From the NCBI GenBank assembly GCA_029721435.1, contig CM056580.1:69899367-69963366 (forward strand): 64,000 bases of DNA, given 5' to 3'. Of this stretch, positions 9,301-45,300 are shown piece after piece. The notes under the pieces were generated by a model that worked only from the letters and a program-made list of their open reading frames with translations, was not told the DNA's origin and searched no databases. Position 1 is the first letter of the stretch. The number at the start of each line of letters is the position of its first letter. The DNA is from Gymnothorax reevesii (taxonomy: Eukaryota; Chordata; Actinopteri; Anguilliformes; Muraenidae). A program made the position numbers and the translations under genes.

Positions 9301-12300
9301 TTAATAGTGGTTTGAGGATGAAGCCTATTGATTTTGGTTGAGTTTTGTTAATTAGTCTAGTAATTAATGAGCTAATTAGACAGAAAATGGATAATTTCTT
9401 GTGAAAGCTCTACAGACCGCAATTCTTAACTGATCATTTTTGTGTCGCCTGCGAAGCATAGCGGCACATGGGGATCACTTTGCCCGGCGTCTGTCTGTCC
9501 GGTAGTCACGCTTTCAGTTGGTAGTCTCACGCAGGCGACTCGTGTTCACCTGAACACTCTAGTCATATTTCACATGCACATTAATAGTGGTTAGAGGATG
9601 AAGCCTATCCATTTTGGTTGAGTTTCGCTTATTATTCTAGTAATTAATGAGCCAATTGGGCAGAAAAATCGATATTTGGTACCCATGGCTTGTACGTTTT
9701 TTGTTTTTGAGATCCTTACCACTAAATGGGGTATACAAGTGTAGCACATGTGTTGTTGACCATTGTGGGGTCCCTCTTGTCGGCGTAATTCTGGCCCCCC
9801 TGGGGATGCCCCCAATGTCAGAAAAATTGCAAAAAATCTAGGTTTTGATTAATGATGACGTTTTTGTGATTTCGGGTAATTCTGCCCCCCCTGGGGGCCC
9901 CCTAATGTATGAAAAATTGGCGAAAATTTATATTTTTGATGATGACTATTTTGTTTTTTAGATCCCCACCTATAAATGGGGTATACAAGTGTAGCATATG
10001 ACCAGATGTTGGCAGTATGTTGGGTTTCCTTCATGTCAAGGTAGTTCTGGCCCACCTCGGGGCCCCCCCAATGTCAGAAAAATTGGTAAAGATTAAGGTT
10101 TTATTAACATTTATGTATTTGACATCCCCACTCTTGCATGCGGTACAGAAGTGTAGCATGTGTTAAGATGTTAAATATGCAGCTTTTCCCTCGTGGGGTA
10201 GTCCTCCCTTTACCCTTCTCCCCAACCCCCCTCCCCCCCATGTATAAAAATAGGCAAAATCTATATTTTTAATCATAACATTTTTGTCATTGACAAAAGC
10301 ATTGCAGTCTGAGCATTCACAAGAAAATCTCTGCGGACGCACAACGACCGCAAATCCGCACGATGGGCCGAATGTTTTTCCCTACTTTGGATTGCCCTTG
10401 AAATGATCTAAAATGTACATGAAGCATATTTTGCAAGCCCATGTTAAAGTAAAATTTCCACCCTGCCATCGACCACAGGGGTTTAGAACTTATTTCAGTT
10501 TTAGTGCCATGTTTAAGGTATGTTTAGTTGAGACTATCATTAAACGTTTTACATTTTTTGCTTGCATGTGGCTTCGAAAAATTGCAATCCTCATAACTCA
10601 TGTATTTGCAGAGCTTCTGAATATGCCACGGACACGAATTAGTCCTTTACAGGATGCTATTAATCATGCCAGCCAACAGATTGACAAGGTGGATAGTCTT
10701 GAGGCAAGATATATCAACCCATTTAAAGGTGAGTCTGATCACAGGCACTTTACATTCCTGAGTTGTAGGAGGTTAGAAACAGACAAGTTGTTTCACTGAC
10801 TGCACAAACATGTATAATCTTAATTATGTTTATGGTGTCTGCTGCAATAGTATTGTTTAAGGCAGTTTATATCAGTACACAGTGGGGGGAGGAGCTGTAG
10901 CCACTTGATGCAGCTAGAAGTTGCAGGGGGGTGTGGCAGACACAAATCACATGCCTGCAGTGGGGCAAGGCTACAGAAGGCTGAGGTGGTCCCTGTGTGC
11001 CAGGGCTTTGATGGGGCACGCACACACCACAATGTCAGCAATGTCAGCAAATTATATCTATGGTAATTCATAGTTTTGCTGATAAACGCCTGCATTGTGA
11101 TCACTCCCATTTTTTAATTTCATCTGATGTAGTATCCGGTTTGTCCAAAGCATCCTGCAGTGCAGCATTTTTAAAAAAAAATTTTTTTAAATAAGCAAGG
11201 TGCACACAGTTTTCTAATATATCTCCCAGCATGTATTTTTTCCTTTGAAATGTGAAGGCTATTTTGATAATCAGTTTCCTTATGAAAAATGGCTAAATAT
11301 TGTAAGAATATTAAATTATGTCAAATTTTTTATATTTAAAACTAATATGACAGAAAGACTTCATCAGATAAAGGGACACTTTGCCGTTTTTTAAGTGGCT
11401 TTCCAGTTGCTGTGGATGGTAAATCTAGTCCACAGAAGCAATACTTTACTCAGTGTGTGTTATATTTACAAAGAAATCTGCCTGCTCACCAGCCACATCG
11501 ATGATGTTGATGGTATCCAGGAAGAACTACAGGCTATTCTACATTGAATTTCTAGTCTCCTCTGCATAGCCAGGGGATGCTTGGCTTCTTAGTTTGCTTG
11601 GCTTCCATTACAAACTAGCTTTCAGACTGAGAAAATGGCATCACAATGATTGGCTACAGAGGATATTATGGATGAGGATACTTTTTACAATGTTTTTGCT
11701 GACTCATATTCACTCGTATTTAATCGAGCCAGAGTACACGTCTGTGGAAATGCAGCAGAGTGTGGTTGTTTTAACCTACAACTAACATAAACATCACAAA
11801 CACTTTTCATGCGTGTCTCATCAGGGCTTCAGAATAGTTTTGCACAGGTTGCACTGGTACTTGCTTGCGCCAGTACATGATGTGGTCACACATTTTTTCT
11901 TTTTTTTGTAATATAGATGTAATGCTTTTGAATCTCCCCATTTTCTGTTACAGGGCGTGGTGTATTTGCAAAAAAGCCTTTCAATAATGGGGATTTTATC
12001 TTGGAGTACAGAGGAGAGCTAATTGACCAACCAGAGGCTCAGAGGAGGAGGACATTTTACACGGCTGAACAGGCTGTATTTATGTTCGATTTCATTTGGA
12101 ATGGAAAGCCAATGTGGTAGGTTGACATCTTGCCATATTAAAAAGTTTTTACTGTTAGTTGATAAGTCAGTTTGTGGGACCGTAGCCAGCCTAGTGGAAG
12201 ATGTGGTTCATGGTTATTTTTTTTCAACAAGCTCAAATTTGCATTGAAGTCCGTGGCACAGTGACTTGGCCACTGACACTAATGGCATGCAAACCAATGT

Positions 12301-42300: not shown

Positions 42301-45300
42301 CAAGTGGACATGTCCGGTATGTACTGTCAGTGTAATGCCTGTGCAGGGCCCAAGTGGACATGTCCGGTATGTACTGTCAGTGTAATGCCTGTGCAGGGCC
42401 CAAGTGGACATGTCCGGTATGTACTGTCAGTGTAATGCCTGTGCAGGGCCCAAGTGGACATGTGCGGTATGTACTGTCAGTGTAATGCCTGTGCAGGGCC
42501 CAAGTGGACATGTCCGGTATGTACTGTCAGTGTAATGCCTGTGCAGGGCCCAAGTGGACATGTCCGGTATGTACTGTCAGTGTAATGCCTGTGCAGGGCC
42601 CAAGTGGACATGTCCGGTATGTACTGTCAGTGTAATGCCTGTGCAGGGCCCAAGTGGACATGTCCGATATGTACTGTCAGTGTAATGCTTGTGCAGGGCC
42701 CAAGTGGACATGTCCGGTATGTACTGTCAGTGTAATGCCTGTGCAGGGCCCAAGTGGACATGTCCGGTATGTACTGTCAGTGTAATGCCTGTGCAGGGCC
42801 CAAGTGGACATGTCCGGTATGTACTGTCAGTGTAATGCCTGCGCAGGGCCCAAGTGGACATGTCAGGTATGTACTGTCAGTGTAATGCCTGCGCAGGGCC
42901 CAAGTGGACATGTCCGGTATGTACTGTCAGTGTAATGCCTGCGCAGGGCCCAAGTGGACATGTGCGGTATGTACTGTCAGTGTAATGCCTGCGCAGGGCC
43001 CAAGTGGACATGTCCGGTATGTACTGTCAGTGTAATGCCTGTGCAGGGCCCAAGTGGACATGTCCGGTATGTACTGTCAGTGTAATGCCTGTGCAGGGCC
43101 CAAGTGGACATGTCCGGTATGTACTGTCAGTGTAATGCCTGTGCAGGGCCCAAGTGGACATGTCCGGTATGTACTGTCAGTGTAATGCCTGTGCAGGGCC
43201 CAAGTGGACATGTCCGGTATGTACTGTCAGTGTAATGCCTGTGCAGGGCCCAAGTGGACATGTCCGGTATGTACTGTCAGTGTAATGCCTGTGCAGGGCC
43301 CAAGTGGACATGTCCGGTATGTACTGTCAGTGTAATGCCAAGTGGACCACCAAATTGGTGTCTACTGCCACTTAAAAAAAAAAAAAAAAAGAAAGAAAGA
43401 AAAATTGGTGTTACTGCTGCCACTTGACTTCTGTTGGAGTTTTTAAAATGTATTATTATCATTATTGTTCTTTAAATCCTAGTTACATTTTTGTCAAACA
43501 GTTGGCTGATGTAGTCTGATCATTTATTATCCTCCTTTGAACTACGCTTGAGCAATGAACAAAGCAATCATTTTAATTTCCCTTCCCAGCAGTCCCTTCA
43601 GCAGTGTTCCCATTTCTGTACAAATGGATTGTTATTTACATGTTTATTACTGGTTTTTCATCATTTGTCTTTATAGACAGTAGTGAGTCCACACTCCAGA
43701 GTGACGCCGAATCCTGCCTGAAGAGACCTGAGACGGAAGTGACGCACACGTCAGCTGGGAGAAGTGGCACCAGTGCAGCAGACCATCAAAATGTTGACTG
43801 CACTAGAGCATCTTCAGCTCAAAATAGAGGTGCAGTAATGAACTTTAGCGTGGCCCCTATTGAATTTAGTTCAATTTTGTTTGTTTAGGAGAAGACACTT
43901 CACAGAAACAAAAGGAAAAAAGTCTAAGTCTCTCGGTCCCCTGATGGGCAGGAGCAAAAACTATCTAGTTGCAGAGAGAAACCCTTTCAAATTTCAATTT
44001 TTTGATTTCAGCTCAAGAAAAAGTCTTAAGCGATAATAACACTTTCTCAAAAACATTATTCCTATTTCCTTCTATCGGCTTTGAAAACTAGAAAGATTAA
44101 GTACTTGAGAGAGCATGTTTATAGACACCAAGGCTCTCTTTCGAAGCCAAGAGAAAGACCTGCATTTTTGAGAAGTGCCACTTATGTTCCAGCTGACGGG
44201 ACTTTTGTTTTAGAGTACAAGTGTGGTCAGTATACCAAGGAGCTGTTTTTTATTCTTCGCAATAACTTTGTTTTAATGGAGGAACTACATGAAGGGTTTT
44301 GCGTAAAGCAGCGAATCCAGCTGCCACTCTATCAAGGGGCTGGCCGAAAAGACTAATGCAACAGTATGAATCCTCATGCTTTAAAACTAAACCATAAATC
44401 CACTTTGCAAAAATGCTGATAATTGGATGAGAGTAATGGGTCTGGTGTTGAGTTGGTATTTGCGATCTCAGGAGTGACCAGTTTTGGCTGGTACATCTGT
44501 GTACATCTGAGTATTTTTCCTATTCTTAACCTCACCATCCTGTTCTGTCCTCTGCATTGGAGAGATTATTATAGACAAAATACTTAATTCTCATAAGAAT
44601 AAATGGATATTTGTTGAAGTGACCAGAGAAATAATATGGTAACCAACAATTATTTTTCATTATTCTCATTTTTATCTAGGTCGCCCTGCTGTGATAAAGA
44701 GGCCGTGGCAAAAGGAGGAAATTGCTGTCGTGCTAAAGAACATGTCCAAATTCATTGACAAGTGTCAGGTGCCAAGGAAGATGGACTGCGATGCATGCAT
44801 TAAAGCAGGGCCAGAAGTGCTCAGAAACAGAGATTGGAAGGCAATCAAATTCTTTGTAAAAAATAGAATCACAGCAATGAAAAGACAGACCTGTGAGTGA
44901 GGCAGTTTTTTTTTTTTTTTTTTAAATCAATTTTGTGTTTTAATTTTAGTATGTATGAACAAATTGGTACAATGGAAAATACTGTGTGATAGTAAGTTGT
45001 ATGACATACTATGGGCCAGATTTTCCAGGATCAGAATGGCGCTGCGGGATGTCAGATGTCAGATGTGGGGTGCGTAGTGGGACGGGTGTGGCTGTGGAAT
45101 TTTGTTATTTATCTGAGTAAGAAGCGACTTGTGGCCCTCCTAGCAAAATGCGTGGCGCACTTGTCAGATGGGCTGGGTTATGCAGACTATATTATCAGTG
45201 GGTGGTGATTCATTCAAATCCAATCAAATTAACTACAAACCCCAATTCCAATGAAGTTGGGACGTCGTGTAAAACGTGACTAAAAACAGAATACAATGAT

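What the first reader, a model, noticed from the sequence alone, without database searches (positions are those of the whole stretch)
10623..44900. A KMT5A-like SET domain and a tyrosine recombinase appear to be one spliced gene
Seen: 21 exons with GT/AG ends whose phases agree at every junction and sum to 4578 nt with no internal stop. Known: SET8/KMT5A methylates H4K20, and tyrosine recombinases with Cys/His fingers typify Crypton-like elements. Inferred: a protein that could couple chromatin methylation to DNA recombination or to target-site choice, analogous in concept to the primate SET-mariner fusion SETMAR but of a different type. It could be a captured host SET in a mobile element or a domesticated recombinase. 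I know of no description of this combination.
Basis: partly seen in the sequence, partly recalled or inferred. Interest (0 to 1): 0.92.

Follow-up and report, generated by a model that had tools for sequence, protein, structure and literature searches.

The report
Giant fish transposon encoding SET-recombinase protein
A 44,000-base stretch of this fish genome recurs on several chromosomes with the same two ends, nearly always set in TG repeats, so it is likely a giant jumping element, and its one gene is predicted to make a DNA recombinase joined to a histone-methyltransferase-like SET domain, a pairing that our literature searches did not find described.

Summary
The gene lies in a larger unit, window 7827 to about 51538. 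The unit has ten copies on eight contigs of this genome; eight have both ends (43.2-49.8 kb). Three fetched copies differ from the window by 0.2-1.9% outside repeat arrays. Flanks differ. Right ends abut a TG tract in 15 of 15 junctions read, left ends in 7 of 8. One copy sits between two consecutive kinesin exons. The recombinase domain is predicted to fold like XerH/Cre and keeps R, K, R, H and Y. Most likely this is a giant, recently mobile tyrosine-recombinase DNA transposon of ray-finned fishes, with relatives in frogs, that inserts into TG microsatellites and carries a KMT5A-like SET domain in its recombinase. By the features tested it is neither a Crypton nor a Starship. Transposition was not observed; the role of SET is inferred.

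The parts
7778..7826 (.). (TG)n microsatellite at the left end: presumed target tract
   Evidence: tandem repeat; left junctions
7827..51538 (.). the repeated unit (presumed transposon), ten copies in this genome, eight with both ends
   Evidence: right boundary read as ...GAGTAT before the TG tract
7827..7850 (.). left terminus of the unit, TTCTTGTTTTTATATTATGG...
10623..10728 (+). first coding exon (ATG at 10623)
   Evidence: relatives begin alike
11954..12116 (+). SET domain exon, first half
13293..13482 (+). SET domain exon, second half
13717..13782 (+). 66-nt repeat exon, isolated copy
14231..14344 (+). linker exon
   Evidence: splice signals and phase only
15439..15573 (+). exon for a helix resembling the Mastermind-like N-terminal helix
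   Evidence: Pfam below cut-off, MAML1 chain E 1.7e-5
15932..21027 (+). tandem array with nine 66-nt repeat exons
36540..36605 (+). further repeat-exon copy without AG acceptor; doubtful exon
36726..36830 (+). acidic linker exon
   Evidence: resembles relatives by eye
39103..41413 (+). large exon: acidic repeats, two Cys/His fingers, tyrosine-recombinase domain
43677..43829 (+). linker exon after the recombinase
   Evidence: splice signals and phase only
44680..44900 (+). last exon: C-terminal three-helix domain and stop
51514..51538 (.). right terminus of the unit, ...GTAGTTAAACGAGTAT
51539..51608 (.). (GT)n microsatellite at the right end: presumed target tract

Best explanation
The window holds a ~43.7-kb unit with defined ends that recurs on other chromosomes and is likely a giant DNA transposon, whose single spliced gene is predicted to encode a tyrosine recombinase fused to a KMT5A-like SET domain. 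Shown: dispersed near-identical copies, shared ends next to TG tracts with different flanks, one copy placed inside a kinesin intron, intact exons in the three copies read in full, conserved R, K, R, H and Y, and the SET-recombinase pairing across fishes. Predicted: the recombinase fold. Inferred: the recombinase cuts at both ends and joins them to a circle whose junction holds a short GT core; strand exchange with a genomic (TG)n tract inserts the circle and leaves TG on both sides. Inferred and untested: the SET domain methylates histones (H4K20 is the first candidate) or other lysines on the element or at the target, easing access to chromatin or keeping the inserted copy expressible; zinc fingers and the C-terminal helices bind the element ends; the repeat-exon array is a flexible spacer of variable length.
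For: Ten copies of the recombinase exon at 95-100% on eight contigs, both orientations. Left terminal 400 bp at eight places at 98-100%, right terminal 386 bp at ten places at 95-100%. Alignments of three copies stop at the same ends, apart from C12's left end in an assembly gap. TG tract at 15 of 15 right ends and 7 of 8 left ends read; TG/CA tracts of 12 bp or more cover 0.28% of flank bases. C21 insertion splits two consecutive kinesin exons, profile 133-175 and 177-212. Five recombinase exons on different loci differ by 0-3 of 2,310 nt. Fold matches XerH, Cre, lambda Int; R, K, R, H, Y kept in 50-53 of 55. 114 of 114 listed new SET-part hits carry the recombinase.
Against: No empty site, excision circle or transcript was seen. 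The C10 copy has only a short GT-rich stretch at its left end, and its two flanks share about 70 bp. Foldseek gives no match at E 0.001 or better and no Pfam recombinase profile matches. The HxxR histidine is Thr. pN/pS pooled over the eight exons is 0.79, so constraint between copies is not shown. Inverted arms at the core are weak.
Confidence: 0.8

Rival explanations
1. A host gene family spread by segmental duplication or by recombination between TG microsatellites, not by its own recombinase: blocks bounded by TG tracts would be copied by replication or repair errors.
For: TG tracts flank the blocks and could serve as homology; two C1 family-B copies and several C16/C22 copies look like larger duplicates.
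Against: The same two end sequences in eight copies on six contigs with different flanks; a second family with about 54% identical recombinase also ends at TG tracts in 4 of 4; the unit encodes a recombinase with its catalytic residues kept.
Confidence: 0.1
2. A mobile element that carries two separate genes, a SET gene and a recombinase gene, joined only by gene prediction.
For: No transcript of this locus; 26 kb separate SET from the recombinase exon; 43 of 180 relatives show the recombinase without SET, though many of these are fragments.
Against: Splice phases agree over the whole set of exons; 137 of 180 relatives hold both in one model, which are mostly automatic models; a conserved order SET, recombinase, C-terminal exon in 23 of 53 genome places and in 10 of 10 copies of this family.
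Confidence: 0.1
3. A domesticated recombinase: a host chromatin protein family that kept duplicating.
For: SETMAR is a precedent for a SET-transposase fusion in a host gene (recalled); Crypton-derived host genes exist (PMC3212892: abstract, sections 5 and 8 and passages seen).
Against: Per PMC3212892 the domesticated Crypton recombinases lost the catalytic Tyr and second Arg; here these are kept in 52 and 53 of 55 rows. Copies on different chromosomes differ by 0-3 nt in the exon. Host orders are mixed in the tree.
Confidence: 0.06

Closest known systems
Crypton DNA transposons (CryptonA/CryptonI of animals)
   Same: Uses a tyrosine recombinase and no terminal repeats of its own were found at the ends; occurs in fish (medaka Cryptons, PMC3212892).
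   Different: Ten times larger or more than a recombinase ORF needs, spliced gene with SET, C-terminal domain (animal Cryptons have none, PMC3212892), HxxR His replaced, no DUF3504 match, TG-tract ends.
Starship giant transposons of fungi
   Same: Tens of kilobases, mobilised by a tyrosine recombinase (PMC12134995, listing and start of abstract seen).
   Different: Fish host; no cargo gene recognised besides nested transposase fragments; recombinase encoded by a multi-exon SET fusion; no Pfam match to a fungal captain domain.
SETMAR (primate SET-mariner fusion)
   Same: SET domain joined to a mobility enzyme (recalled).
   Different: SETMAR is a single domesticated host gene with a DDE transposase (recalled); here a tyrosine recombinase inside a repeated unit.
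Teratorn of teleosts
   Same: Giant mobile element of fishes.
   Different: piggyBac-type transposase and herpesvirus genes with terminal inverted repeats (PMC6431247, passages seen).
KMT5A (SET8) histone H4K20 methyltransferase
   Same: Closest solved structure to the SET domain, E 1.9e-23.
   Different: NHS motif reads ND in 135 of 135 relatives that the pattern found; fused to a recombinase.

Membership tests
Tyrosine recombinases (superfamily) | recombinase fold | tested here: met
Tyrosine recombinases (superfamily) | catalytic Arg, Lys, Arg, His, Tyr | tested here: met
   50, 50, 53, 52 and 52 of 55 rows; positions assigned by motif, not by a residue-level structural alignment.
Tyrosine recombinases (superfamily) | match to a curated recombinase profile | tested here: not met
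   No Pfam or PHROGs recombinase family for the window exon nor in the ten relatives scanned with Pfam.
Crypton | R-H-R-Y tetrad | tested here: not met
   The His of HxxR is Thr in 49 of 55 rows, Val or Ala in 6; R, R and Y are kept.
Crypton | sequence kinship to Crypton recombinases or DUF3504 | tested here: inconclusive
   No Pfam DUF3504 match; Crypton sequences themselves were not at hand.
Crypton | animal Cryptons have no C-terminal domain (PMC3212892) | tested here: not met
   A conserved C-terminal three-helix exon follows in 10 of 10 family copies.
Crypton | no terminal inverted or direct repeats | tested here: inconclusive
   Only TG tracts and a weak 7-of-9 inverted match, reached by 2.2% of random pairs.
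Starship | captain recombinase with the fungal DUF3435 domain | tested here: not met
   No such Pfam match; that DUF3435 marks captains is recalled.
Starship | cargo genes | tested here: not met
   Of 20 further ORFs of the unit scanned, two match Pfam, both transposase fragments; not all ORFs were scanned.
KMT5A-type SET methyltransferases | SET domain with KMT5A as nearest kin | tested here: met
   PF00856 E 6.2e-17; KMT5A chains lead the list of solved structures.
KMT5A-type SET methyltransferases | NHS motif of the cofactor site | tested here: not met
   ND in 135 of 135 proteins found by the pattern, of 137 with SET.
KMT5A-type SET methyltransferases | H4K20 monomethylation | not testable with these tools
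   Needs an enzyme assay.
Mobile elements in general | precise empty site or new insertion seen | not tested
   Only one genome held; the kinesin exons either side of the C21 copy show the interrupted gene.

The most novel reading that the evidence does not exclude
A new superfamily of giant vertebrate DNA transposons: a microsatellite-seeking tyrosine recombinase that carries its own histone methyltransferase (and in some lineages a Mastermind-like helix), is still moving in this fish, has spread through ray-finned fishes and frogs with horizontal transfer between fish orders, and uses lysine methylation at the synapse to enter chromatin or to stay open in it.
Probability: 0.4. Interest if true: 0.96.

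Novelty: new variant of a known kind. Interest (0 to 1): 0.9.

Why it matters
Giant recombinase-borne transposons are best known from fungi; a fish counterpart would explain many 'uncharacterized protein' models in fish genomes and give a vertebrate mobile element that carries its own chromatin writer. TG-tract targeting makes insertions predictable, and near-identical copies suggest that movement could be caught in living fish. It would make testable how a transposon uses chromatin modification for its own movement.

Tried and rejected
Pfam and PHROGs give no recombinase match for the window exon, nor Pfam for ten relatives, so the assignment rests on fold and motif. A profile of 55 rows against solved structures matched SET domains in the 60 rows shown of 125. 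The VIA list names no Crypton or Starship captain, which says nothing. Inverted arms next to the TG core are weak: 7 of 9, reached by 2.2% of random pairs, and longer arms by 5-16%. Purifying selection among the copies could not be shown: pooled pN/pS 0.79, few changes. Family-B ends were sought: three 6-kb stretches beyond the last exon hold no TG tract of eight units; C4 departs from the two C1 copies at a TA, most simply a later insertion; the end was not reached. Left ends of the related families were not found.

Nine paper searches for SET or methyltransferase with a tyrosine-recombinase element, KMT5A and transposons, giant transposons, Starship or Crypton in fish, and microsatellite targets list no paper whose title or abstract start describes this combination; bioRxiv and most subscription papers are not held. 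PMC3212892: abstract, sections 5 and 8 and passages seen; PMC6431247: passages seen; all others: listings only.

Considered and set aside: an endogenous virus. Of 20 further ORFs of the unit scanned with Pfam, none matches a viral family; not every ORF was scanned. Assembly duplicates: the flanks of the copies read differ from each other, except that C10's own two flanks share about 70 bp.
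Full report
The window belongs to a 2.17-Gb genome held without a name; the named relatives listed are ray-finned fishes and two frogs. From 10623 to 44900 on the plus strand, exons can be joined in phase into an open frame of 1,407 codons. They encode, in order, a SET domain (PF00856 E 6.2e-17; closest solved domain KMT5A, E 1.9e-23), a linker with 22-residue repeat units, a helix that resembles the Mastermind-like N-terminal helix (MAML1 chain E 1.7e-5; Pfam 20.3 bits, below the cut-off of 25), an acidic stretch, two Cys/His fingers, a tyrosine-recombinase domain and a C-terminal three-helix domain. 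My model has 20 exons and 4,224 nt; one of them (36540) has no AG acceptor.

It is one gene family, not a chance neighbourhood. The recombinase exon alone found 66 proteins; many, in carps, characins, a fighting fish and a frog among others, carry PF00856 in the same model. The SET part alone found 250 proteins, of which 120 were listed and 114 were new; all 114 carry the recombinase domain with 200 or more aligned residues (isoforms counted). Over all 180 proteins, 137 have both domains and 43 the recombinase without SET. In this genome 45 SET-exon matches and 63 recombinase matches (53 places after merging) were scored; 37 SET exons have a recombinase exon downstream on the same strand, 5.9-33.7 kb away, and 8 have none; two of these (44-45% identity) may be the host's own KMT5A genes (inference). 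The C-terminal exon follows in 33 of 53 places, and all three exons are in order in 23 of 53. Transcription: one unnamed relative, P0047, is read from a 2.9-kb contig that holds the recombinase and the C-terminal exon in one frame, which suggests a spliced transcript; most other short-contig relatives run into what looks like intron, so they are probably genomic. No transcript joining SET to recombinase was seen.

It lies in a repeated unit with defined ends. The recombinase exon has ten copies at 95-100% identity on eight contigs, in both orientations; nine are open frames and the C18 copy is split in two. Three copies fetched with their surroundings (C21, C12, C8b) align to the window from 7778 (C12 from 9149, where an assembly gap begins) to about 51600 and no further. 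The first 400 bases of the unit occur at eight places at 98-100%, plus one weak fragment. The last 386 bases occur at ten places at 95-100%, plus a C17 fragment, a 60-base match on C12 and four matches at 75%. The eight copies with both ends measure 43.2, 43.7, 45.1, 45.2, 45.4, 45.8, 48.1 and 49.8 kb (coordinates). Outside repeat arrays the window differs from C21 by 0.24-0.32% and from C12 and C8b by 0.73-1.9%. Ten exons (nine single ones and the isolated repeat exon) are present in all three copies with the same splice signals. Among eight recombinase exons, five differ from each other by 0-3 of 2,310 nt, which points to recent spread. Of 20 further ORFs of the unit scanned with Pfam, two match, both fragments of Tc1-type or DDE transposases; their stretches lie within the alignments of the three copies, so they were probably carried along.

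Where it sits. At the left, the unit starts with TTCTTGTTTTTATATTATGG after a TG tract, interrupted in two cases, in 7 of 8 junctions; the exception is C10, with a short GT-rich stretch and one changed base. At the right it ends with AAACGAGTAT before a TG tract in 10 of 10 full right ends and with a variant in the C17 fragment; four copies of a related family (about 54% identical recombinase) end with TTACAGTAT before a TG tract. So 15 of 15 right ends read, of 16 matches. TG or CA tracts of 12 bp or more make up 0.28% of 74,648 flank bases. In C21 the left flank ends with an exon matching kinesin profile positions 133-175 and the right flank begins with positions 177-212; joined they score 77.4 bits. 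So that copy lies in an intron of a kinesin gene. The right flank of C8b holds a NOL6-type exon (PF17404, E 4e-19; the name NOL6 is recalled).

The repeat exons. By pattern, the 66-nt exon with intact splice signals occurs 10, 9, 5 and 7 times in the window, C21, C12 and C8b, so its number changes between copies. In 86 of 114 proteins with SET before recombinase, the linker holds a tandem repeat of at least two units, with unit sequences that differ between species.

How it would work. Established knowledge of tyrosine recombinases gives excision as a circle and insertion by strand exchange over a short shared core. A GT core shared by the element's ends and the target would explain TG on both sides. 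This is inferred. The SET domain's part is a proposal: methylating nucleosomes at donor or target, or shielding the insert from silencing. Weak inverted arms (AAACGAGTA and AAACAAGAA) flank the core; random pairs do as well in 2.2% of trials.

History. A tree of 55 recombinase domains (short search) mixes host orders: 22 label changes against a least possible 9, shuffled mean 30.6. Alosa (herring order) and Anabarilius (carp order) share 95.4% in SET and 95.8% in recombinase, about as much as the two carps Phoxinus and Anabarilius (92.8% and 96.1%). Linkers are less alike. This suggests horizontal transfer, but no host-gene yardstick was computed and strong constraint could mimic it.

Verdict. 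A real and, by our searches, undescribed kind of giant vertebrate tyrosine-recombinase transposon. It works like Cryptons and Starships in that it likely moves by its own recombinase, but the tested features do not allow membership in either.

Noticed in passing
window 15439-15573: Helix resembling the Mastermind-like N-terminal helix (MAML1), seen only in some relatives: Pfam matches in P0046, P0050, P0177 and P0178, of which P0177 exceeds the cut-off; P0180 weakly.
   Followed up: partly
L036 and L043 (C10 copy): The left junction lacks a long TG tract, and both flanks share a stretch of about 70 bp. Unexplained.
   Followed up: no
P0077, P0099, P0100, P0111: Near-identical SET and recombinase domains in a herring-order fish and carps, 85-89% with a cichlid: candidate horizontal transfer.
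   Followed up: partly
P0070, P0071: Predicted proteins with the domain order reversed, recombinase before SET; may be annotation of two neighbouring copies.
   Followed up: no
window 27595-29711 and 42240-43339: Minisatellites of 41-bp and 50-bp units inside the unit whose length differs between copies and explains much of the size range.
   Followed up: partly
window 45000-51200, copy C8b: Here C8b is closer to the window (0.73%) than C12 is (1.72%), while elsewhere both differ alike: possible recombination between copies.
   Followed up: no
G000 contigs C16 and C22: Another SET-recombinase family with eight closely similar matches clustered on two contigs: possibly segmental duplication or local hopping.
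   Followed up: no
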